Made by a program: the position numbers and the translations under genes
Notes under the pieces: generated by a model
The model's input: the letters and a program-made list of their open reading frames with translations, nothing else
Told to the model about the DNA's origin: nothing
Databases searched by the model: none
From: Aureibaculum flavum
GTDB lineage: Bacteria > Bacteroidota > Bacteroidia > Flavobacteriales > Flavobacteriaceae
Reading direction: 5' to 3'
DNA length: 64,000 nucleotides
NCBI RefSeq assembly: GCF_016406085.1
Contig: NZ_JAEHFJ010000012.1
Span: forward strand, 1-64,000
Shown here: piece after piece, positions 15,906-26,672 of the stretch
Layout: every line of letters begins with the position of its first letter
Position numbering within the stretch: position 1 is the stretch's first letter

Positions 15906-18680
15906 ATGAAAAGGCTACTTATATTAATCTCATTTTTTATCCCAATTTTAACCTTTGCCCAACAGGGAATAATTTCTGGAGTGCTATCAGATGAATCTGG
16001 TCCATTACCAGGAGTTTCAATAACAATTAAGGGAACAAACACAGGCACACAGACTGATTTTGATGGACAATACAGCATTAATTGTTCTGTTCGCGATGTT
16101 CTGATTTACAGTTTCATAGGTATGAATACTAAAGAAGTAACAGTTACTTCCAGAATGTTGGGTTATGCTAATAACCTGACACTAACACCAGAAATTCCTG
16201 TTAAAAATATACTCTCTGATGCCTATAATAATGCTGTAAAAAGTGATAATGAGCCATTCAGTATTCAAAGAAATGAAAAAGAGTATAATCGTGATGTTTA
16301 TTTCCAATATGATAGAATCAAAAAAATTGAGATAGAAAAGGAAAAGGTTAAATTAAGTTATTTTCTTCCTGATATTTTTTATGAAGTTGGATTTACGTCA
16401 GATTTTACTGTAAAGTCAATAAAAAATAGCAATTTACCATCTTTACAGAATACCTATAGTCAAGGCGAACCTGTAAATAACAATACTACTCACCTTGGTC
16501 CGGAAAGTAATAGTGTTTTTTCTTTTGGACCACGAATTTCCAACTTGGAGTTTGACAATAGCAATTATCCTTATGATGTAAACGGAAAATTAATTCCAAA
16601 AGGTACAGGTTCAGCAAAACCTGCCAATGTTTATGACAATTCAATATTGAACACATCTCTAAGACAAAATAATCATTTGTATTTTAATGTTTCTTCTGCT
16701 TATTACCTTTTAGGTTTAGATTATAAAAATACTATAGATAATGATATTTTTAATGTCAATAAAAACACCACCAATCAATTTAATGCCAATTTTTTAACGC
16801 AAAACAATACCAAAAAAATCAATTGGGATGCGTTTATTAATTATACGGTTACTGATAATAATCAATCCAATTTGAATGGATATCAAACAAATTTGTTGTT
16901 AAATGCAATGGCAACACCAATCAGCTTTGAAAACAGACAAGGTGTCGTATTAAATGATGGTTCTCAACGTAGTTTCAGTAATATATTAAATAACCCATCA
17001 TGGATATTTGACAATATTGACAATACTATAAAAACGGACAATTTTATTGCAAGCCTGAAACAGAAAATTAAACTATCTGATGTTTCAAGTCTTGAACCAG
17101 CTATTAATTTTACAAATTCTAGTTCCACGGAAGTTGTAAAATTTGCAAAAAACACTGCTGGTTTTCTTGATGGATATGCTAAAAATAGAAAAGTAGATGA
17201 TCAAAAAACCAACATTGCTATTCAATATAATTATAGCAAATACTTGAGTGTGTTTAACCTTGGAATAAAATCAAATATTAGTTATCAAAACGAGGGTTTG
17301 GATTATGATTTAAATGAAATAAACGGATTGGTTATTAACAATCAATCGCAACATAAGAATAGAAATACCTTACAATGGAATAATACTATTACTTCAAAGT
17401 TCTGGAATGAACAATTAACCGTAGTGTTAACAAATAATAGCTTTGTTTCCTCTATTCAAAACTCAAAATTATGGTTGCCAGCTCTTAATGTAACTGGAGA
17501 GTTTAGAAATATGCTAAATTCAAATTGGATCAATAATTTGTCCTTGTCTGCAAGTGTTTCAAAAAATGTAAATGAAAGCCCACTATTATATACCAATAGA
17601 AGTCACAATAGCCTTAATCTGTTACCAGAACAATCTAGATTTTATTTAGATAACAATGATTTATTTCTAACAGGAGACCTTAATCTGGAAGAAAAAACAA
17701 ATTTTGAAATTGACGCTTCCTTACAAGCAAGAGTTTTAGAAATTGGTTTAAACCTTAACCTTACCTATTATATAAATAAAACGAATAACTCTGTATTTCC
17801 AATACTTAATCAAAACAACTATGAATTGGCAAATGTTGCTGACGTAAGAACGAATGGATTTGAACTTAGTTTTCAAGCTTTTTTTAGAGATCGGTATAAC
17901 CATTTTAAATACACTCCAAATATTGTTTTTGCTACATATCAATCAAATGTTACGAAAATGCTTAACCATGAATCTGTACCCATTGCAGGTTTTAAGACCA
18001 TTTCTCAAAATTTAGTTACCAATCAACCTGCTGGAGTTTTGGTAGGTTCTGCATATGCAAGAGATGTAAGTGGTAATAAAATTATTGATGCTTCGGGTTT
18101 TCCAATGGTGGCAGAAACACTCAAAATTATTGGCGACCCAACTCCTGATTTTAATATGGGATTTTCAAATAATTTTGAGCTGAAGGACTTTAGTTTCAAT
18201 TTTGTTATAGATGTCAGAAAAGGTGGAGATGTCTGGAATGGAACTCAAAACGTCTTAGATTATTTAGGACGCTCTTCACGCTCTGCCAATGACCGTCAAA
18301 TTACCAATTATATTTTTGAGGGTGTAAATCAGCAAGGTGATGTAAATACTATTCCGGTAGATTTTGCCAATCCCGAAAATGGATTACAAGGCAATAAGTT
18401 TGTGCGTTACGGATTTTCAGGAGTAGCGGAAGGTGCTATTGTTGATGGTAGTTATCTCAATTTGAAATCTGTAGAAATTGGTTATACAAAGCATTGGAAC
18501 GAACGATTTGTAAGAAATCTAAACGTTAAAATTTACGCAAATAATCTATTTACCTATTCAAAGTTTAAAGGAACCAATCCATACAGCAGCTTATTTGGAG
18601 CTTCAACGGGTACAGCACTCAATTTTTTTAACACACCTTTAATCACAGAAATTGGTTTAAAATTAAATCTAGAAATATAA
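15906..18680 (+). CDS. SusC-like TonB outer-membrane barrel lacking a plug domain
   Basis: 924 residues from ATG 15906 (signal peptide MKRLLILISFFIPILTFAQ; the TTG at 15885 overlaps the promoter box). Residues ~20-95 are a carboxypeptidase-regulatory-like domain (GPLPGVSITIKGTNTGTQTD). Where SusC proteins then have a ~120-residue plug, this one goes straight into linker and barrel (LSYFLPDIFYEVGFTSDF). SusC barrel signatures follow: GDPTPDFNMGFSNNFELKDFSF, DVRKGGDVWNGTQ and KIYANNLFTYSKFKGTNPYSS. The missing plug is found in the next gene, whose ATG overlaps this stop codon (TAATG). I infer an outer-membrane channel closed in trans by the A2M protein. Cargo unknown; no SusD partner nearby. 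Confidence 0.88.
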   Translation: MKRLLILISFFIPILTFAQQGIISGVLSDESGPLPGVSITIKGTNTGTQTDFDGQYSINCSVRDVLIYSFIGMNTKEVTVTSRMLGYANNLTLTPEIPVKNILSDAYNNAVKSDNEPFSIQRNEKEYNRDVYFQYDRIKKIEIEKEKVKLSYFLPDIFYEVGFTSDFTVKSIKNSNLPSLQNTYSQGEPVNNNTTHLGPESNSVFSFGPRISNLEFDNSNYPYDVNGKLIPKGTGSAKPANVYDNSILNTSLRQNNHLYFNVSSAYYLLGLDYKNTIDNDIFNVNKNTTNQFNANFLTQNNTKKINWDAFINYTVTDNNQSNLNGYQTNLLLNAMATPISFENRQGVVLNDGSQRSFSNILNNPSWIFDNIDNTIKTDNFIASLKQKIKLSDVSSLEPAINFTNSSSTEVVKFAKNTAGFLDGYAKNRKVDDQKTNIAIQYNYSKYLSVFNLGIKSNISYQNEGLDYDLNEINGLVINNQSQHKNRNTLQWNNTITSKFWNEQLTVVLTNNSFVSSIQNSKLWLPALNVTGEFRNMLNSNWINNLSLSASVSKNVNESPLLYTNRSHNSLNLLPEQSRFYLDNNDLFLTGDLNLEEKTNFEIDASLQARVLEIGLNLNLTYYINKTNNSVFPILNQNNYELANVADVRTNGFELSFQAFFRDRYNHFKYTPNIVFATYQSNVTKMLNHESVPIAGFKTISQNLVTNQPAGVLVGSAYARDVSGNKIIDASGFPMVAETLKIIGDPTPDFNMGFSNNFELKDFSFNFVIDVRKGGDVWNGTQNVLDYLGRSSRSANDRQITNYIFEGVNQQGDVNTIPVDFANPENGLQGNKFVRYGFSGVAEGAIVDGSYLNLKSVEIGYTKHWNERFVRNLNVKIYANNLFTYSKFKGTNPYSSLFGASTGTALNFFNTPLITEIGLKLNLEI

Positions 18681-21600
18681 TGGTTTCAACTAAAAAATAT
18701 TCGAACACAATTATCTTTTGTATAGCTTTATTAATGATGCTTTCATTTAAAGCTACAGAAAATAATCAAAAAAATACTATAGAAAAAGTATACGCTCAGA
18801 CAGATAGAACGTTCTATTTTCCAGGAGAAACCCTTTGGTTTAAAGCTTATGTTATCGATGCTGAAAACAAAATTACTGCATATAGTGATGTATTAACTGC
18901 AGAGTTGATATCACCAAAAGGTTCCGTAGTATCGAAATTAAAATTAGAAATTAACCAAGGTTATGCTTATGGCGATTTTAATATTTCAAATGATTGGTCT
19001 GGAGGAGTTTATACCTTAAAACTATACACCAATTGGATGCGTAATTTTGGGGAAGAAGCCTTATTCAAAAAAAAGATTACAGTTCAGAAAGTAGTAAAAC
19101 CCAACCTATTATTAAACTTAAAATTTCAAAAAGAAGGCTATGGAAGTGGTTCAGAGGTTATTGCCGATTTCGAGGTAAAAGATTTAAAAAACCAGCCTCT
19201 AAAAAATCACAACATTCTTTTTGATGTAATGGTGAGTGGAAAATCTTTTTTGACAAAAAAAATAAATACAGATAATGATGGAAAAGCAAATCCAACTTTT
19301 CAATTACCTGATACTTTAGAAACTTCTGATGTGTTACTCAATGTGCAAATTCCTTACCAAGGAAGCACGGAATCTATTGCGAGAAGTGTACCTGTTGTAT
19401 TAGATAATATTGACTTACAATTTTTCCCAGAAAGCGGACAGATATTAATAGACAATGAAAATAACATTGCGTTTAAAGCCTTAAATGAATTCGGAAAACC
19501 AGTAGATGTTTCTGGTGAAATAGTAGATGAAAAAGGGATTAAAGTAGCAAATTTTTCGAGTTATCATGATGGTATGGGGTCTTTTCAATTGTCAACGAGG
19601 ACAAATAACTATTATGCTAAAATTACAGCACCTTTTAAGTCTTCAAAACGTATTACGTTGCCAATGTCGATTGTAAAAGGGGTTAAATTTTCAGTAACCA
19701 CCGAAAAAAAACATACAATTGTAAATTTGGTATCAACGCTAGACGAGAATTTATCCTTAGAAGTTCAAAATAATAATAAATTGCTATTAACAAAAAAAAT
19801 CGGTTCCAAATCGCAAATTATAAAAGTAAATACAAAGGATTATCCAATGGGAATTTCAAAGTTTTCTATTAAGGATAAGTATGGAAACATAATAGCAGAA
19901 AGACTTGTATTTATCAATAAAGATCAAGAACTTAATGTAGATATAACTTTAGATAAAGAAAGCTATCAAACGAGAGAAAGAGTAAAAGTTAAATTAAAAA
20001 CTACAGATAAAAACAACAATCCCATTCCGTCAAACTTATCCATCGCAGTTGCAGATAATAAATTAATTTCTTTGGCGGATGATAAGCAAGACCATATGTT
20101 GTCTTATTTATTGATGTCATCTGAATTGAAAGGTAAAATCTATAAGCCTATTTTTTACTTTGATAAAGAAGAATTAAAAGCCGATAAAGCATTAGATTAT
20201 GTAATGCTAACACATGGCTGGAGAACTTACACTGAAGTTACATTTGAAAATGCCAAGTTTAAGCCTGAAAAGCAATCTATTGAATCAGGTATTGTTACAT
20301 TAAAAAATGGAAAACCTGTAAAAGCACATTTATTACTTTTTGATATGATTGGCAATGAAGTTGGTGTATTTGATACAGATGAAAAGGGACAATATTCATT
20401 TAAAAAGCAGGGAGGAATTACCTATGTTTTACTCGCTTATACTGATGACCAACGTCACGTTTTGATTAACAACCAAAAAAGTACAACAGCCAATTTTTCA
20501 AGTGAAGCTACGAGTACAATTATTGATGTAGATGATGAACAAAAACAACAATTTATTGGCAACGAAAATCCTATAAAAAAAACAATTCAACAAAAGGCGG
20601 AAATATCGGATATCATGTTGGCATCTGACAGTGCATTAGATGAGGTTGTAGTTATAGGTTACGGTGTAATGAAAAAATCAAATTTAACAGGAAGTGTTGC
20701 CATTATCAATTCAAAAGGGCTGGCTGAAAATGGAGATCTGGTAAAAGTACTTCAAGGGAAAGTAAGCGGGGTTGAGGTTGCTAATACTCAAATTTATGGG
20801 GTAACGGGAGCCACTGGAAATATCTCTATAAGAGGAAGTAGATCTGTTTCAGGAAACGGCGAACCATTATTTATTCTAGATGGAACTGTAGTAGAAAATG
20901 TTGCTGCTATTGCTGCTGATAATATAGAGAGCGTAACTGTTTTAAAAGACGTTTCTGCAACCGTATTATATGGAAGTCGAGGGGCAAATGGTGTTATTGT
21001 AATGCGATCTAAAAATAGGAAAATTAATAATTATGGTAAAAAAAGTTTAAATAATATTAAGTATAATAATTATTCTGTGGCTACTTTTTATCCTCAAAAA
21101 AGCAGAAATTTCAATAAACGGAGTGCGTTTTATATGCCGAAATATGACAGTAAAGAATTGTCAGAAGAACGCTCGGACTTTAGACAAACAATTTATTGGA
21201 ATCCAGTAGTACAAACTGACGAAAACGGAGAAGCGGAATTTGAGTTTTACAATTCAGATGCTATTACTTCCTTTAAAATCACAGCAGAAGGTATTGGTGC
21301 AAACGGATTAATAGGAAGACAAGAAAAATTTTTCAGCACTAAAAAACTACTGAATGTCGATTTTAAGGTCCCTGCCTATCTAACAGTTAATGATACTGTG
21401 GTTTTACCTATTACGGTCAGAAATGAATCGGACCAAATATTAACGGTCAAGTTGGATATTAATTTTCCAAAAGGTATAAAATTGCTTACTGATTTTAACA
21501 CTTCAATTTCAGTTGATGCAGCAAGCAGTTCAATAGTGAATGTAAAAATTATTCCAATAGAAAAATCTGAAGAAGAAACAATAACTGTAACAGTGAAATC

Positions 21601-23233
21601 TAAAAATTTGAACGATGTGTTAGATAAAAAAATAGCGATTGTCAGTCCTTATTTTCCTACAGAAGTTTCTATGTCGGGTACTAAAAATCAAACTTTTGAC
21701 TTTGATGTAAACCATGTCGTACCTAATACAATTTTGGCAAACTTTACTATTTACACTGATATTGTGGGTGATGTTATGGATGGAATAGAATCCATAATTA
21801 GGCAACCATATGGATGTTTTGAGCAGGTCTCTTCAAGTACCTATCCAAATATTTTAGTGTTAAAATATTTACAAGAAACGGGTAAGAACAATCCTGAAAT
21901 TGAAGATAAAGCCCTTGGATACATAGAAGATGGATATAAAAAATTGATTGCTTATGAAACTAGCCAAGGTGGGTTTGAATGGTTCGGAAAAACCCCACCA
22001 CATGAAACTTTAACTGCTTATGGGATTCTAGAATTCAATGAAATGAAAGCCGTTTATCCTAATGTTGACCAGAAGATGATAGAAAGAACCGTTGAATGGT
22101 TAATAAGTAGAAAAGATGGAAAAGGTGGTTTTAAAAAGAGCGATTTAGGTTATGATAGTTTTGCAAAATCTCTCATAGAAGTTGCAAATGCCTACATAGT
22201 ATACGCACTTTCGGAATCAGGAGTTTCAGTAGATATTATTAAAGAATTTGATAAGGCTTACACTGAAGCAATAAAGAGTGAAGATATATATCGTATGGCT
22301 TTAATGGCTTTGACGAGCTATAATATGAATAAAACTGAAAATGCCACTGTTTTGACAAACAAGATAATAGATCAATTAAACAAATACGGGTTTGAAAAAT
22401 TGCCAGTTGAAAACACCATTACAAGATCCTATGGTAATTCAAAAAATATTGAAACTACGGCATTTGTTTTACTGGCACTAATGAAATCTAAAGATCATGT
22501 TGATATAATTTCACAAGGCGTGGAACACCTTGTAAGTCTCAGACAAAATGGCGGTTTTGGTTCAACACAATCTACTTCAATGGCTCTGAAATCCTTAATT
22601 GAGTTTACTAAAATAAGTAAGCGAAAAATGATTGAACAAAATGACCCTATTGAATTAATAGTTAATGGAAAGTCTTTTAAATCTGATTTAAATATAGATG
22701 AGAATGGAAAAATTACTATTGATGATTTTAATAAACATATTACTTCTGGAAGTCAAAAAGTACAAGTAAAATTTTCTAACCCAGAAGTAACTTTTCCGTA
22801 TAGCCTTACTATAGGTTGGGACAGCTATTTACCAGATTCATCACCTGAAACGAGAATTAATTTAAGCATTCAAATTGAAAATAAAAATTATAAAGTCGGT
22901 GATAATATCAGGATGTCCGTTAACTTAGAAAACAAAACGAATGAAGATGTATCCATGCCAATCGCCATTATCGGAATTCCTTCAGGAGCAAGTGTTCAAT
23001 CATGGCAGTTGCAGGAAATTGTAGATAGAGAAGAAGTTGCTTTTTATGAAATTTTCGATAATTATTTGGTTTTATATTGGAGAGCTTTTGCCGCGAAAGA
23101 AAATAAAACCATTCAACTTGATTTAAAATCAGAAGTAGCAGGCGTTTACCAAGCACCAGCTTCAACTGCTTATTTATATTATGCTAGCGAGTATAAATAC
23201 TGGATTGGAGGTAATAAAATTGAAATAAAATAA
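18680..23233 (+). CDS. Alpha-2-macroglobulin family protein with embedded TonB plug domain
   Basis: 1517 residues. A signal peptide without lipobox is followed by macroglobulin domains (QTDRTFYFPGETLWFKAYV, ~40-58) up to ~530, and a carboxypeptidase-regulatory-like domain (~533-600). Then comes a complete TonB-receptor plug (654-777): LDEVVVIGYGVMKKSNLTGS, LQGKVSGVEV, GNISIRGS, PLFILDG and VLYGSRGANGVIV. The A2M domain follows (TIYWNPVVQTDENGEAEFEF, ~834) and the thioester domain with PYGCFEQ (Cys1046-Gln1049). Bacterial A2Ms trap proteases through the thioester. Here the plug occupies the middle of the chain, near the bait region of classical A2Ms, and the partner barrel upstream has none. 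Likely periplasmic or surface-facing and bound to the barrel; role unknown. Confidence 0.9.
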   Translation: MVSTKKYSNTIIFCIALLMMLSFKATENNQKNTIEKVYAQTDRTFYFPGETLWFKAYVIDAENKITAYSDVLTAELISPKGSVVSKLKLEINQGYAYGDFNISNDWSGGVYTLKLYTNWMRNFGEEALFKKKITVQKVVKPNLLLNLKFQKEGYGSGSEVIADFEVKDLKNQPLKNHNILFDVMVSGKSFLTKKINTDNDGKANPTFQLPDTLETSDVLLNVQIPYQGSTESIARSVPVVLDNIDLQFFPESGQILIDNENNIAFKALNEFGKPVDVSGEIVDEKGIKVANFSSYHDGMGSFQLSTRTNNYYAKITAPFKSSKRITLPMSIVKGVKFSVTTEKKHTIVNLVSTLDENLSLEVQNNNKLLLTKKIGSKSQIIKVNTKDYPMGISKFSIKDKYGNIIAERLVFINKDQELNVDITLDKESYQTRERVKVKLKTTDKNNNPIPSNLSIAVADNKLISLADDKQDHMLSYLLMSSELKGKIYKPIFYFDKEELKADKALDYVMLTHGWRTYTEVTFENAKFKPEKQSIESGIVTLKNGKPVKAHLLLFDMIGNEVGVFDTDEKGQYSFKKQGGITYVLLAYTDDQRHVLINNQKSTTANFSSEATSTIIDVDDEQKQQFIGNENPIKKTIQQKAEISDIMLASDSALDEVVVIGYGVMKKSNLTGSVAIINSKGLAENGDLVKVLQGKVSGVEVANTQIYGVTGATGNISIRGSRSVSGNGEPLFILDGTVVENVAAIAADNIESVTVLKDVSATVLYGSRGANGVIVMRSKNRKINNYGKKSLNNIKYNNYSVATFYPQKSRNFNKRSAFYMPKYDSKELSEERSDFRQTIYWNPVVQTDENGEAEFEFYNSDAITSFKITAEGIGANGLIGRQEKFFSTKKLLNVDFKVPAYLTVNDTVVLPITVRNESDQILTVKLDINFPKGIKLLTDFNTSISVDAASSSIVNVKIIPIEKSEEETITVTVKSKNLNDVLDKKIAIVSPYFPTEVSMSGTKNQTFDFDVNHVVPNTILANFTIYTDIVGDVMDGIESIIRQPYGCFEQVSSSTYPNILVLKYLQETGKNNPEIEDKALGYIEDGYKKLIAYETSQGGFEWFGKTPPHETLTAYGILEFNEMKAVYPNVDQKMIERTVEWLISRKDGKGGFKKSDLGYDSFAKSLIEVANAYIVYALSESGVSVDIIKEFDKAYTEAIKSEDIYRMALMALTSYNMNKTENATVLTNKIIDQLNKYGFEKLPVENTITRSYGNSKNIETTAFVLLALMKSKDHVDIISQGVEHLVSLRQNGGFGSTQSTSMALKSLIEFTKISKRKMIEQNDPIELIVNGKSFKSDLNIDENGKITIDDFNKHITSGSQKVQVKFSNPEVTFPYSLTIGWDSYLPDSSPETRINLSIQIENKNYKVGDNIRMSVNLENKTNEDVSMPIAIIGIPSGASVQSWQLQEIVDREEVAFYEIFDNYLVLYWRAFAAKENKTIQLDLKSEVAGVYQAPASTAYLYYASEYKYWIGGNKIEIK

Positions 23234-23486: not shown

Positions 23487-26400
23487 ATGAAAAAAGCAAT
23501 TAGCCTTTGTATTTCCTTATTTATTTTAGTATTTGGATATGCTCAAAGATGTCCAACATTAAAAGTGAAAAATCAAGAATTAGGCCTGTCATCATTAGAT
23601 ATTAAGGTTGATATCGTAGGTAATATAGCAACAACAACCTATGATATGCTTTTTTACAATCCTACAAATTCAGTGTTAGAAGGGGAATTATCATTTCCTT
23701 TGGGAGAAGATCATAATGTTTCACGATTTGCCTTAGAGGTGAATGGGAAATTAAGAGAAGCAGTTGTCGTTGAAAAAGAATTAGGTCGAATTGCTTTTGA
23801 AAATGTGGTTAGAAGGGGAGTCGATCCGGCATTACTTGAAAAGGGTTCGGGTAACAATTACAAAGCTCGTATTTATCCTATTCCCGCAAAGGGCTATAAA
23901 AGGGTTTTATTGGCTTATGAGCAAGAACTTGTTTTTCATCTAAATTCTCATGCTTATGAATTACCCTTAAATTTTAAGAATAAACTAGATTCCTTCAAGT
24001 TAAATATCTCGGTCTTTGATCAAAAATACAAACCAATTATTGAGAAAAATGGCATTTCAGAATTTGAATTTTCAAATTGGAATAAGAATTATACAATTGA
24101 CATTAAAAAGAGAAATTACATTGCAAATAAGCCATTATTAATTAAAATCCCTTTATCTGTTACCACAGAAAAAGTAATGGTTAGTGACAATTACTTTTAT
24201 ATTTATAAAACGCTATCTCCAAAGAAAAGACTCCGAAAAAAACCAAATTTTATTACCATCTATTGGGATGCGTCACTTTCATTAAGAGAACGGAATATTG
24301 AGAAGGAAATTAATTTTTTACAGGAGTATTTTGCGTATCAGAAAAATGTAAAAGTACAATTGGTTACATTTAGTAATACGATATTAACGGATAAACCATT
24401 TACCGTAAAAAATGGTAATTGGGAATCTTTAAAAAAGGAATTAAAGAAGGTGGTTTATGATGGTGGGACTAATTACTCAATACTTTCTTCAAAAATAAGA
24501 AATACATATGCTAGCCTGTTATTTACGGACGGAATAGCAACTTTGAGTGATTTGGAATTAAAAAGTGAGACTCCAGTTTTTGTTATAAATAGTAGTTTAA
24601 AATCTAATCATGCAGGGTTGAAAAGACTTGCTGAAGTAACAAATGGAAGTTATATTAATCTCCAAACCAACGCTATTTCTGAAGCAATATCAAAAATGAA
24701 ATTTGAACCTTATAAGTTCTTGGGTTACGAATCTAATAATAAGACCTTAGAGATTTATCCTGTTTCACCTATTAGTGTTTCAAATGATTTTTCTATTTCT
24801 GGTAAATATTCAGACAACATAAAAAGTATTGTTTTAAAATTTGGATACGGAAACGAGGTCCTTCAAAGGGTTGAAATAGACGTGAAAAAACCTATAATTC
24901 ACAAAATTGTAGAAAGAATTTGGGCTCAGAAAAAATTAGAGAACCTAATGTTAAATGTCAAAAAGAATAAACATCAAATAACAGAATTAGGTAAAGCATT
25001 TAGTTTGGTAACTAAGTACACCTCTTTAATTGTGTTGGAAGATGTTAGAGATTATGTTACCTATCAAATAACACCTCCTGAAGAATTATTAGAAGAATAC
25101 AACAAAATAATGGCTCAACAAGAAGAAAAAAATGTTAGTCCTCCGAGTCGAAATGTGGTTGGGGATAATGCTCGTATGATGAGAATTTCACCAAACCCTA
25201 AATCTATACGAATTATGAATGATGTTATAGAGTTGGATGAGGAAATAATTGAATCTGATGAAATAGTAATGAATGAAATCGTTGAAATTGTTGAGGATAG
25301 TGAGGTTATTGAAGATGTACCCTTTTCCATAATTGAAGAAGTACCGGTGTATCCAGGTTGCGAGGGTTCCAATGATGAAAAGAAAAAATGTTTTAGTGAT
25401 AGTATAACTCATCATTTTAGTGAAAACTTTAATGGTGAACTAAGTAATAATTTAGGTCTTCCGAAAGGCACATACAGAGTTTATGCACGATTTACTATAA
25501 ACAGACGTGGTAATGTTGTGAATTTACTAGCAAGAGGACCACATAGAAAACTAGAAGTTGAAACCGTTAGAGTGCTGCGTTTGTTACCAAAAATGATTCC
25601 TGGAAAACAAAGAGGAAGATCAGTAGCAGTTAATTATACGTTACCTATAGTTTTCAAAATAGGTTCTGGTAGTCAAGGGCAATCATTCACCGTAGAACCA
25701 TATGTGTTTACACCTTCTCGAGATGTAGCTAATTATAGAAAATATAAAGGAGACCTCACTGTAAAAGAGAGAGGCGTTAAAACTGATTATTTAAGCGAAT
25801 TAGAATTGGCCACAAACAAAGAACAAGCCTATCAAATTTATCTAGAACAAAGAGAAAACTATTTAGAAACACCTGCTTACTTTGTAGATGTTGCCAATCA
25901 CTTTAAGCTCGATTATAATGATACTATTTATTCATCTAGAATTCTATCTAATATAGCAGAAATAGATTTTGATAATTATGAATTATTAAAGGTGTTTGCC
26001 TATCAATTACAAATTGACAAACACGATGATATGGCACTATTCATATTTAAGCAAATATTGAACTTAAGACCTGAAGATTCTCAATCGTACAGAGATTTGG
26101 CAATTGCATATCAGAACATAGGCTATTGTCAAGAAGCGTTAGATTTATTTAACAGTGTTATTACGGGTGAAATTTATAAAGATTCTCATAGACGTAAATT
26201 TAAAGGGATAGAAACTGTTGTCAGAAATGAAATCAGATACCTTATTCAAAAACACAAAGATGATTTGGATCTAAGTAAGGTTGATAAAGAGCTGTTAGAT
26301 TCGGTAAATTATGATATACGAGTTGTTGTAGATTGGAACCGTAATGATACTGATATCGATTTGCATATTATAGATCCAAATTTAGAAGAATGTTTTTACA

Positions 26401-26672
26401 GTCATAATAAAACAACTATTGGTGGTTATATGACTGAAGATATGACACAAGGTTTTGGGCCCGAAGAGTTCACTTTAAAAAATGCTATTAAAGGAACATA
26501 TTATGTAAAAATTAAATATTTTGGAGATAGATACCAAAAGGTTGAAAACCCTACATTTATGAAAGTTACAATTTATAAAAAGTTCGGATCAGAAAAGGAA
26601 ACAAAGGAGACTCAAATTATAAGGCTTACTAAAAACGATGAAGAAGAAATAATTGCTAAGTTAACGTTTTAA
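23487..26672 (+). CDS. VIT-VWA protein with embedded TonB C-terminal domain, TPR and DUF2135-like tail
   Basis: 1061 residues with a signal peptide (GYA-Q). In order: a VIT domain (~20-150; FYNPTNSVLEGELSFPLGED, ARIYPIPAKGYKRVLLAYEQ); a von Willebrand A domain with MIDAS-like DASLS, GGTNYS and FTDGIA (~255-420); a Glu-rich linker; a TonB C-terminal domain (~619-722; EVPVYPGCEG, YARFTINRRGNVVNL, VNYTLPIVFKI); TPR-like repeats (~790-930); and a C-terminal DUF2135-like fold (DTDIDLHIIDP...EEFTLKNAIKGTYYVKIKY). VIT plus VWA is the core of inter-alpha-inhibitor heavy chains. TonB_C normally ends a protein and touches receptor TonB boxes; here it is internal. It lies downstream of the A2M-plug gene but past a terminator, so shared function is an inference. 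Confidence 0.85.
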   Translation: MKKAISLCISLFILVFGYAQRCPTLKVKNQELGLSSLDIKVDIVGNIATTTYDMLFYNPTNSVLEGELSFPLGEDHNVSRFALEVNGKLREAVVVEKELGRIAFENVVRRGVDPALLEKGSGNNYKARIYPIPAKGYKRVLLAYEQELVFHLNSHAYELPLNFKNKLDSFKLNISVFDQKYKPIIEKNGISEFEFSNWNKNYTIDIKKRNYIANKPLLIKIPLSVTTEKVMVSDNYFYIYKTLSPKKRLRKKPNFITIYWDASLSLRERNIEKEINFLQEYFAYQKNVKVQLVTFSNTILTDKPFTVKNGNWESLKKELKKVVYDGGTNYSILSSKIRNTYASLLFTDGIATLSDLELKSETPVFVINSSLKSNHAGLKRLAEVTNGSYINLQTNAISEAISKMKFEPYKFLGYESNNKTLEIYPVSPISVSNDFSISGKYSDNIKSIVLKFGYGNEVLQRVEIDVKKPIIHKIVERIWAQKKLENLMLNVKKNKHQITELGKAFSLVTKYTSLIVLEDVRDYVTYQITPPEELLEEYNKIMAQQEEKNVSPPSRNVVGDNARMMRISPNPKSIRIMNDVIELDEEIIESDEIVMNEIVEIVEDSEVIEDVPFSIIEEVPVYPGCEGSNDEKKKCFSDSITHHFSENFNGELSNNLGLPKGTYRVYARFTINRRGNVVNLLARGPHRKLEVETVRVLRLLPKMIPGKQRGRSVAVNYTLPIVFKIGSGSQGQSFTVEPYVFTPSRDVANYRKYKGDLTVKERGVKTDYLSELELATNKEQAYQIYLEQRENYLETPAYFVDVANHFKLDYNDTIYSSRILSNIAEIDFDNYELLKVFAYQLQIDKHDDMALFIFKQILNLRPEDSQSYRDLAIAYQNIGYCQEALDLFNSVITGEIYKDSHRRKFKGIETVVRNEIRYLIQKHKDDLDLSKVDKELLDSVNYDIRVVVDWNRNDTDIDLHIIDPNLEECFYSHNKTTIGGYMTEDMTQGFGPEEFTLKNAIKGTYYVKIKYFGDRYQKVENPTFMKVTIYKKFGSEKETKETQIIRLTKNDEEEIIAKLTF

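What the first reader, a model, noticed from the sequence alone, without database searches (positions are those of the whole stretch)
15906..23233. TonB receptor split in two: plugless SusC-like barrel coupled to an alpha-2-macroglobulin that carries the plug
The first gene has signal peptide, carboxypeptidase-like domain and SusC barrel but no plug. The second, overlapping it by one base (TAATG), is an A2M with thioester CFEQ and a full plug (residues 654-777) inside it. Plugs are normally N-terminal on their own barrel. A plug supplied in trans by a protease-trap-like protein suggests a new kind of outer-membrane machine. The A2M may be docked in or under the channel; thioester capture of a protease or surface damage could be signalled through the plug, or the barrel may export or anchor the A2M. 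Mechanism is inference; the domain split is seen.
Basis: partly seen in the sequence, partly recalled or inferred. Interest (0 to 1): 0.88.

Follow-up and report, generated by a model that had tools for sequence, protein, structure and literature searches.

The report
Plugless barrel with plug-bearing alpha-2-macroglobulin partner
Two neighbouring genes encode an outer-membrane channel that lacks its usual stopper and an immune-type trap protein that carries the stopper, and its motor-binding handle, in the place where such traps normally hold their trigger, which suggests an undescribed energy-driven capture gate in Bacteroidota.

Summary
Gene 1 (15906-18680) encodes a SusC-type 22-strand barrel with no plug. 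Gene 2 (18680-23233) encodes an A2M with MG2, A2M, TED and a GCFEQ thioester motif, plus a TonB box and complete SusC plug at the bait-region position.

Of 80 best relatives, all carry the plug in the A2M. A P1-like barrel lies upstream in 77; two are cut at contig ends and one (L128) has none within 996 bases. 0 of 77 barrels has a plug. In 120 family genomes both genes occur in the same 8.

I add that the TonB box may be the core feature. In another Flavobacteriaceae A2M class it sits at the bait position in 22 of 28 loci, 20 of them without a plug. A third class (1860 aa) has it in 0 of 21.

Best reading: the A2M's plug closes the barrel from the periplasm, and TonB pulls the bait/plug segment. 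That this arms the thioester is inference. No complex could be modelled, and plug-barrel coevolution was weak.

The parts
15906..18680 (+). P1: plugless SusC-type TonB-dependent-receptor barrel, 924 aa
15906..15962 (+). P1 signal peptide (about residues 1-19, by eye), no lipobox
   Evidence: sequence; AF2 helix 2-16
15963..16166 (+). P1 carboxypeptidase-regulatory-like domain (residues 20-87), the NTE of SusC proteins
   Evidence: PF13715 at 23-82; model
16167..16307 (+). P1 low-confidence linker (about 88-134) where the TonB box and plug of an ordinary SusC would be
   Evidence: pLDDT under 50 at 88-106 and 114-123; strict TonB-box motif in the first 250 residues: 0 of 74 P1
16377..18677 (+). 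P1 beta-barrel (residues 158-924)
   Evidence: TIGR04056 positions 217-980; fold match SusC BT2264, 5fq6, E 4.6e-45
18680..23233 (+). P2: thioester alpha-2-macroglobulin with TonB box and plug, 1517 aa
18785..19033 (+). P2 MG2 domain (36-118)
   Evidence: PF01835 E 6.2e-13
19922..20068 (+). P2 bait-region-domain-like stretch (415-463), weak
   Evidence: PF07703 E 0.0025, below the cut-off in the window; 16 of 28 P2 scanned match at E 0.01
20288..20488 (+). P2 carboxypeptidase-regulatory-like domain before the plug (about 537-603)
   Evidence: PF13620 in 18 of 28 P2 scanned (not called in the window's own P2); strands in the model
20636..20662 (+). P2 TonB box LDEVVVIGY (653-661)
   Evidence: matches the Ton box DEVVVTG of Bt1763 (PMC7782687); 71 of 74 (loose) or 61 of 74 (strict) P2
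20675..20995 (+). P2 plug domain (666-772) at the bait-region position
   Evidence: PF07715 E 1.2e-9; plug in all 80 relatives
21188..21457 (+). P2 A2M domain (837-926), the stretch that follows the bait region in A2M proteins
   Evidence: PF00207 E 7.6e-12; alignment to TEP1 starts at about 827-835 / 601-605
21746..22603 (+). P2 thioester (TED) domain (1023-1308)
   Evidence: PF07678 E 1.6e-35
21812..21826 (+). P2 thioester motif GCFEQ (1045-1049)
   Evidence: present in all 80 relatives

Best explanation
P1 and P2 are two halves of one outer-membrane machine. P2 is a soluble periplasmic A2M whose bait segment holds the front half of a SusC protein (regulatory-like domain, TonB box, plug) on flexible linkers. 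The plug seals the P1 barrel from the periplasmic side, so the A2M hangs under the channel. TonB binds the TonB box of P2 and pulls. In an ordinary SusC this displaces the plug and opens the channel; here the same pull also tugs the bait/alpha'NT strand of the A2M, the element whose release exposes the thioester in known A2Ms. So gate opening and arming of the thioester trap would be coupled, and whatever enters (protease, toxin or peptide) would be captured covalently. Shown: domains, positions, near-constant pairing, lack of plug in P1, TonB-box conservation. Inferred: periplasmic location, docking, TonB action, force trigger, cargo.
For: Pairing: P1 in 77 of the 78 relatives with at least 996 bases upstream, same strand, P1 first (L129 with a 1.2-kb gap), 73 of 77 gaps within 12 nt (the start codon nearest the P1 stop was taken, which favours small gaps). 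The same 8 of 120 family genomes hold both; the four weaker P1-like hits in that search (a second one in G057, and G070, G010, G035; E 9e-73 to 1.5e-31) are SusC genes with a plug. Complementarity: plug in 80 of 80 P2 loci and 0 of 77 P1; Pfam Plug 0 of 52 P1 and 28 of 28 P2. P2 plugs resemble SusC plugs as much as each other (0.40 against 0.41; SusC-SusC 0.44) and keep the SusC signature in 28 of 28, against 9 of 20 TED-less relatives without a P1-like neighbour. The TonB box is the best-kept part of the variable segment (identity 0.62; linkers 0.18-0.31, plug 0.43) and matches the mutationally tested Ton box of Bt1763. Bait position: PF07703-like, plug, PF00207 in order. In class ii A2Ms the box persists without a plug in 20 of 28 (9 of these with no regulatory-like domain), against 0 of 21 in class iii; background 0.013 per window. 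A trigger by bait release is published for human A2M (PMC9352918) and E. coli A2M (PMC4498604).
Against: No complex model could be made. Plug distances correlate only 0.54 with barrel distances (partial 0.14, small though the largest of the plug's partial values), while the other P2 domains reach 0.87-0.93 with the barrel. The plug tree is unresolved, with P2 plugs interleaved with SusC plugs, so plugs may be exchanged. The plug is modelled poorly alone (block pLDDT about 46-70). L128 has a plug-A2M but no P1 within the 996 bases upstream that its contig holds. A plug in an A2M occurs without a P1-like neighbour in other classes. The strict TonB-box motif is found in only 7 of 20 TED-less relatives. 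I found no protease-trapping or TonB-binding data for these proteins in the papers seen. Cargo is unknown.
Confidence: 0.55

Rival explanations
1. Docking only: P1 is an outer-membrane anchor that holds the A2M under the membrane through the plug, placing an ordinary protease trap at the point of entry. TonB plays no part and the thioester is triggered by bait cleavage as usual.
For: Same pairing and plug data; [quoted passage not shown] low-confidence linkers flank the plug.
Against: The TonB box is the most conserved stretch of the segment and persists in class ii A2Ms where the plug is mostly gone and no P1-like gene was seen beside the 7 read in context.
Confidence: 0.16
2. Passenger: front halves of SusC genes recombine repeatedly into the variable bait region of A2Ms. 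TonB may use the box, but the plug no longer enters P1, which is closed by its own loops or another protein.
For: Plug distances are decoupled from all other domains; P2 plugs interleave with SusC plugs; decayed plugs in class ii.
Against: Plug found in 80 of 80 P2 and kept at SusC-like similarity, but lost or unrecognised in many A2M-like relatives without such a barrel (10 of 20 and 24 of 28).
Confidence: 0.14
3. Importer: P1-P2 is a TonB-dependent importer of proteins or peptides. The A2M part is a periplasmic receiver and the thioester is not triggered by force.
For: SusC fold and TonB box; SusC relatives import glycans and peptides (established).
Against: No SusD match in the two genes scanned beside the window pair; an invariant thioester motif suggests covalent chemistry.
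Confidence: 0.1
4. Exporter: the P1 barrel carries P2 to the cell surface, with the plug as a targeting handle.
For: Conserved gene order, barrel first.
Against: Lipobox-like start in only 3 of 74 P2 and no T9SS tail domain listed in the Pfam scans of P2; a folded A2M of about 1500 residues should not fit a 22-strand barrel (recalled geometry).
Confidence: 0.04
5. Artefact: a SusC gene broken or joined to an A2M by sequencing or assembly error.
For: None found.
Against: 77 loci with the same order; apart from those cut at contig ends, only L135 has its P2 split in two frames.
Confidence: 0.01

Closest known systems
SusC/RagA TonB-dependent transporters (Bt1763, BT2264, RagA)
   Same: Barrel fold, regulatory-like N-terminal domain, plug and TonB-box sequences
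   Different: Here plug and TonB box are on another protein; no SusD match in the two genes scanned beside the window pair; TIGR04056 scores below the curated cut-off on each half
Alpha-2-macroglobulins with thioester (E. coli ECAM/YfhM, human A2ML1/CD109, TEP1)
   Same: MG domains, A2M, TED and CxEQ; fold matches E 3.7e-44 to A2ML1
   Different: Bait position holds TonB box and plug; lipobox-like start in only 3 of 74; partner gene is a barrel
T9SS translocon SprA with its separate Plug protein (PMC7463736, passages seen)
   Same: A Bacteroidota outer-membrane barrel closed at the periplasmic end by a different polypeptide
   Different: 36-strand barrel of another family; no A2M or TonB box is mentioned in the passages seen
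Artificially split FhuA (plug and barrel expressed apart; recalled, no call)
   Same: A TonB receptor plug supplied in trans can work
   Different: Laboratory construct, not natural
Class ii Flavobacteriaceae A2M, about 2000-2200 aa
   Same: TonB box at bait position, in 4 of 28 with a full plug; [ED]C[AN]EQ motif in 7 of 7 read whole
   Different: No P1-like gene beside the 7 copies whose surroundings were read; plug mostly lost

Membership tests
SusC/RagA TonB-dependent transporter (P1) | 22-strand barrel of SusC fold | tested here: met
   AF2 model, 22 strands by my count, top PDB match 5fq6 E 4.6e-45, TMq 0.68
SusC/RagA TonB-dependent transporter (P1) | Plug and TonB box on the same chain | tested here: not met
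   0 of 77 and 0 of 52 with plug; strict TonB-box motif in the first 250 residues 0 of 74
SusC/RagA TonB-dependent transporter (P1) | Score over the curated TIGR04056 cut-off | tested here: not met
   146.3 against 368.25 bits
SusC/RagA TonB-dependent transporter (P1) | Adjacent SusD-like lipoprotein | tested here: not met
   The two window neighbours scanned have no SusD match; not tested by profile in the relatives
Alpha-2-macroglobulin (P2) | MG2, A2M and TED domains | tested here: met
   28 of 28 P2 scanned, the window included; fold search
Alpha-2-macroglobulin (P2) | Thioester motif CxEQ | tested here: met
   GCFEQ in all 80 relatives and the window
Alpha-2-macroglobulin (P2) | Cleavable bait region between BRD and A2M domains that triggers trapping | not testable with these tools
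   The position is occupied by TonB box and plug; function needs biochemistry
ECAM-type bacterial A2M | Lipoprotein encoded beside PbpC (recalled) | tested here: not met
   P2 neighbour is P1; lipobox-like start in 3 of 74
TonB-dependent protein (P2) | TonB box sequence | tested here: met
   71 of 74 loose, 61 of 74 strict; binding itself not testable here
T9SS translocon with Plug | SprA-type barrel | tested here: not met
   The best folds are SusC

The most novel reading that the evidence does not exclude
Bacteroidota have turned the bait region of A2M traps into a TonB handle. Instead of waiting for a protease to cut the bait, proton-motive force delivered by TonB pulls it, giving a powered thioester trap. 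The P1-P2 pair is the full form, in which the pulled plug is also the gate of a dedicated channel, so opening and capture are one stroke; class ii A2Ms are a form that mostly kept the handle alone.
Probability: 0.3. Interest if true: 0.95.

Novelty: categorically new. Interest (0 to 1): 0.84.

Why it matters
If right, it is a TonB receptor split between two proteins, with the plug on an immune-type thioester protein, and TonB force would drive something other than transport. It gives a concrete handle on what A2Ms do in Bacteroidota and makes an old question testable: can the A2M switch be thrown by pulling the bait and not only by cutting it? The authors of PMC9352918 name triggers other than proteolysis or reduction as an open point (passage seen).

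Tried and rejected
Cryptic plug in P1 residues 95-200: rejected; a hairpin at about 138-152 recalls the last hairpin of a plug but is short, and no plug profile matches it.

Coevolution of plug and barrel by distance matrices on 74 pairs: weak (partial 0.14), inconclusive; segment length and noise also shape these numbers. Residue-level coupling was not tried: 74 pairs are too few.

Origin of the plug by tree (61 rows, 138 columns): bootstrap not settled, 36 of 58 inner branches open; no conclusion on one or many insertions.

TED-less MG2-plug relatives as a second split-receptor family: no P1-like gene beside them in the loci read, but in L056 and L144 an ordinary plug-bearing SusC gene lies two genes away. 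Neighbours were compared with P1, P2 and the plug profile only (in one search with the window's proteins by BLAST).

Search for relatives of the plugless A2M of L139: only its own genome, 1 of 81. Chitinophaga-type P2 in a class sample: 1 of 295. Both show rarity and give no further outgroup.

Class iii control: in the bait-window test (0 of 21) 4 windows were misplaced (L183, L201, L204, L210); the whole-protein scan of the 21 proteins found no strict motif. Its PbpC neighbour is a recalled label.

Class ii count: 30 loci fetched, 2 dropped because cut (L178, L180), 28 counted; 14 of the 28 come from the window's own genus, so they are not independent. Two of the six without the strict motif have near variants (L159 LDEVVGYG, L179 LDAVVVT).

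Rows dropped: the 74 pairs (motif part), 70, 93 and 99 are the window plus 73 of the 80 loci; L095, L104, L105, L112, L114, L128 and L135 were left out as cut, split or without P1. Alignments A3 and A4 (structure prediction) also hold 74 rows each, but a different set: near-duplicates dropped, L140-L142 added. The scans of P1 used 52 of the 74 rows of A3; those of P2 used 28 sequences (the window whole, 26 other rows of A4, and L104, which is cut).

Full report
WHAT IS THERE. Gene 1 (P1, 15906-18680) and gene 2 (P2, 18680-23233) overlap by one base, TAATG. P1 has a signal peptide (by eye), a CarbopepD_reg_2 domain (23-82) and a SusC barrel, with no plug. P2 has a signal peptide (by eye), MG2, a Plug at 666-772, an A2M domain at 837-926 and a TED at 1023-1308 with GCFEQ at 1045-1049. 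The two proteins split one SusC model between them: TIGR04056 positions 59-262 fall on P2 (634-825) and 217-980 on P1 (165-923). The AlphaFold2 model of P1 is confident (pLDDT 89.9) and shows a small domain, a low-confidence linker of about 45 residues and then the barrel, 22 long strands by my count; its best solved match is the SusC BT2264. The model of P2 318-1517 (pLDDT 75.5) matches A2ML1, CD109, TEP1 and bacterial A2Ms (E 3.7e-44 and weaker); the plug and the linkers on both sides are among its weak parts, as expected for a plug modelled without a barrel.

IT IS A CONSERVED PAIR. A scan of the species-genome collection with the P2 alignment gave 129 relatives, of which the best 80 were kept: Flavobacteriaceae (Aquimarina, Winogradskyella, Psychroserpens, Kordia, Tenacibaculum, Dokdonia, Maribacter and others), Chitinophaga and its relatives, Desertivirga, a Saprospiraceae MAG and a Roseivirga MAG. 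In 77 of the 80 a P1-like gene lies upstream on the same strand, next to P2 in 76 and across 1.2 kb in L129. Of the other three, L105 and L114 are cut at the contig end; L128 has 996 bases upstream with no P1 match, so it either lacks P1 or has it further away, as in L129. 73 of 77 gaps are within 12 nt, taking the start codon nearest the P1 stop. The outer neighbours differ between many of the loci read. In 120 genomes of the family the strong P1 hits (E 1e-100 or less) and the strong P2 hits (E 1e-200 or less) are the same 8 genomes, the window's included; if they were spread independently the chance would be about 1e-12. The four weaker P1 hits (a second one in G057, and one each in G070, G010, G035) were fetched and carry a plug, so they are ordinary SusC genes. 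The system is sporadic: 4 of 395 genomes in a sample across the phylum have a full P2.

THE PLUG IS ON THE A2M AND NOT ON THE BARREL. With a profile made from seven P2 plugs, 80 of 81 P2 frames match; the 81st is the second half of a P2 split in two frames (L135), whose first half has the plug. None of 77 P1 matches. With Pfam, Plug matches 0 of 52 P1 and 28 of 28 P2; TIGR04056 matches 48 of 52 P1, and a regulatory-like domain is found in 28 of 52 P1. P2 plugs are as close to 20 SusC plugs (16 of the window's genome, 4 of relatives) as to each other (0.40, 0.41), and SusC plugs among themselves reach 0.44. The SusC signature TIGR04057 is found in 28 of 28 P2.

THE PLUG SITS WHERE THE BAIT REGION BELONGS. 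In A2Ms the bait segment lies between the bait-region domain (PF07703) and the A2M domain (PF00207) (established). In P2 a weak PF07703 match (415-463), a regulatory-like domain (called in 18 of 28), the TonB box, the plug and then PF00207 follow in order, and the alignments to mosquito TEP1 start at about 827-835 of P2, after the plug. Cleavage of this segment is the A2M trigger: in human A2M the strand that follows it retracts from a channel (PMC9352918, passages seen), and in E. coli A2M untethering of the bait exposes the thioester (PMC4498604, passages seen).

THE TONB BOX. LDEVVVIGY (653-661) of P2 matches the Ton box DEVVVTG of Bt1763, whose deletion or mutation gave a growth defect on levan like that of the SusD deletion (PMC7782687, passages seen). 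It is present in 71 of 74 P2 by a loose pattern and 61 of 74 by a strict one, and by the strict pattern in none of 74 P1 in their first 250 residues; by a looser pattern 12 of 74 P1 match near residues 69-100, which I read as the end of the regulatory-like domain. It is the best-conserved part of the segment: mean identity 0.62, against 0.18-0.31 for the linkers and 0.43 for the plug.

A WIDER PATTERN. The same family holds two other large A2Ms, and the window's genome has both. Class iii (about 1860 aa; a lipoprotein by its start in the two copies read in context, followed there by a gene of about 785 aa that I take from recall to be PbpC) has no strict TonB-box motif anywhere in 21 of 21 proteins. 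Class ii (about 2000-2200 aa, with [ED]C[AN]EQ in 7 of 7 read whole) has the strict motif at the bait position in 22 of 28 loci; 4 of 28 keep a complete plug, 20 have the box without a plug, 9 of these lack the regulatory-like domain too, and 4 have none of the three. The background is 5 motifs in 93,354 residues, 0.013 per 240-residue window; class ii against class iii gives Fisher 8e-9, though 14 of the 28 are from one genus. A TED-less half-A2M class (20 read, 814-1340 aa) has an LxEV core in at least nine tenths, the strict box in only 7 of 20 and a Pfam plug in 10 of 20. Neither class has a P1-like gene beside it in the loci read, though in L056 and L144 an ordinary plug-bearing SusC gene lies two genes away. 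One A2M from another class of the phylum (L139) has the TED but no plug and no P1-like neighbour. So where there is no dedicated plugless barrel the plug tends to decay, and in class ii the TonB box tends to stay; where P1 is present the plug stays recognisable. This is the best evidence here both for docking of the plug in P1 and for TonB acting on the bait.

HOW IT LIKELY WORKS. P2 has a plain signal peptide by eye, a lipobox-like start in only 3 of 74, and no T9SS tail domain is listed in the Pfam scans, so I expect it in the periplasm. Both ends of a TonB-receptor plug face the periplasm (established knowledge), so a plug looped out of an A2M could enter a barrel from below. A 22-strand barrel without any stopper should be harmful, so a conserved plugless barrel needs one; P2 brings it (inference). 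In Bt1763 the plug can leave the barrel in vitro, and in the type 9 secretion system a separate Plug protein closes SprA at the periplasmic end (PMC7463736, passages seen). TonB pulling on the TonB box would withdraw the plug and at the same time pull on the bait strand. That this arms the thioester, so that what enters is caught, is inference; I give it about 0.3.

AGAINST. Plug and barrel distances are only loosely coupled (0.54; partial 0.14), much less than barrel and the other P2 domains (0.87-0.93). The plug tree is unresolved and mixes P2 and SusC plugs, so plugs may be swapped in from SusC genes from time to time. L128 shows no P1 within reach. No complex could be modelled with the tools at hand. 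I looked for no expression data, and the cargo is unknown.

LITERATURE. 'TonB box' with 'macroglobulin' gave no paper; TonB-dependent receptor, plug domain, alpha-2-macroglobulin and Bacteroidetes together gave none. Looser searches gave longer lists of which I saw titles and starts of abstracts only for the papers listed (10 of 48, 20 of 37, 15 of 161, 12 of 15, 12 of 24); none of those was about this pair. The library holds open-licence papers only; one relevant review (10.1111/mmi.14683) was not held.

Noticed in passing
window 23487-26672 (+): Next gene downstream: 1061-aa protein with VIT, weak VWA, TonB_C (665-725, just under cut-off) and DUF2135 domains. A TonB C-terminal-like domain beside a TonB-box A2M is suggestive. 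A 584-aa protein in L052 (4763-6517) beside a TED-less MG2-plug gene resembles its C-terminal part.
   Followed up: partly
L182:2867-9451 (window genome, C12) and L151-L180: The long Flavobacteriaceae A2M class has a TonB box, and in 4 of 28 a full SusC plug, at the bait position.
   Followed up: yes
L046, L053, L058 and L143-L145: TED-less MG2-plug proteins, in tandem arrays of two or three in L046, L053 and L058; LxEV core mostly kept, plug recognised by Pfam in 10 of 20, function unknown.
   Followed up: partly
L142:3623-4090; L146:5006-5683; L147:4696-6042; L140:1891-4203: Plug domains outside any receptor: a 156-aa protein with two half plugs, 226- and 449-aa regulatory-domain-plus-plug proteins, and a plug-VWA-secretion-tail protein just upstream of the pair in L140, itself after a gene that looks like a sigma factor by eye.
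   Followed up: no
L139:7174-11880: Thioester A2M of the same family from another class with regulatory-like domains but no plug and no P1-like neighbour; by eye it has a TonB-box-like VQEVIV before the A2M domain.
   Followed up: partly
L086, L091: P1 proteins of two Dokdonia records of only about 800 aa, with part of the barrel apparently missing, still beside a full plug-A2M.
   Followed up: no
L107, L113, L124, L134, L129 and relatives: Chitinophagaceae-type P1 proteins (about 840-900 aa) match the window P1 mostly from about residue 155-170 on, so they may lack the N-terminal regulatory-like domain and be little more than a barrel; L134 and L129 had no Pfam match.
   Followed up: partly
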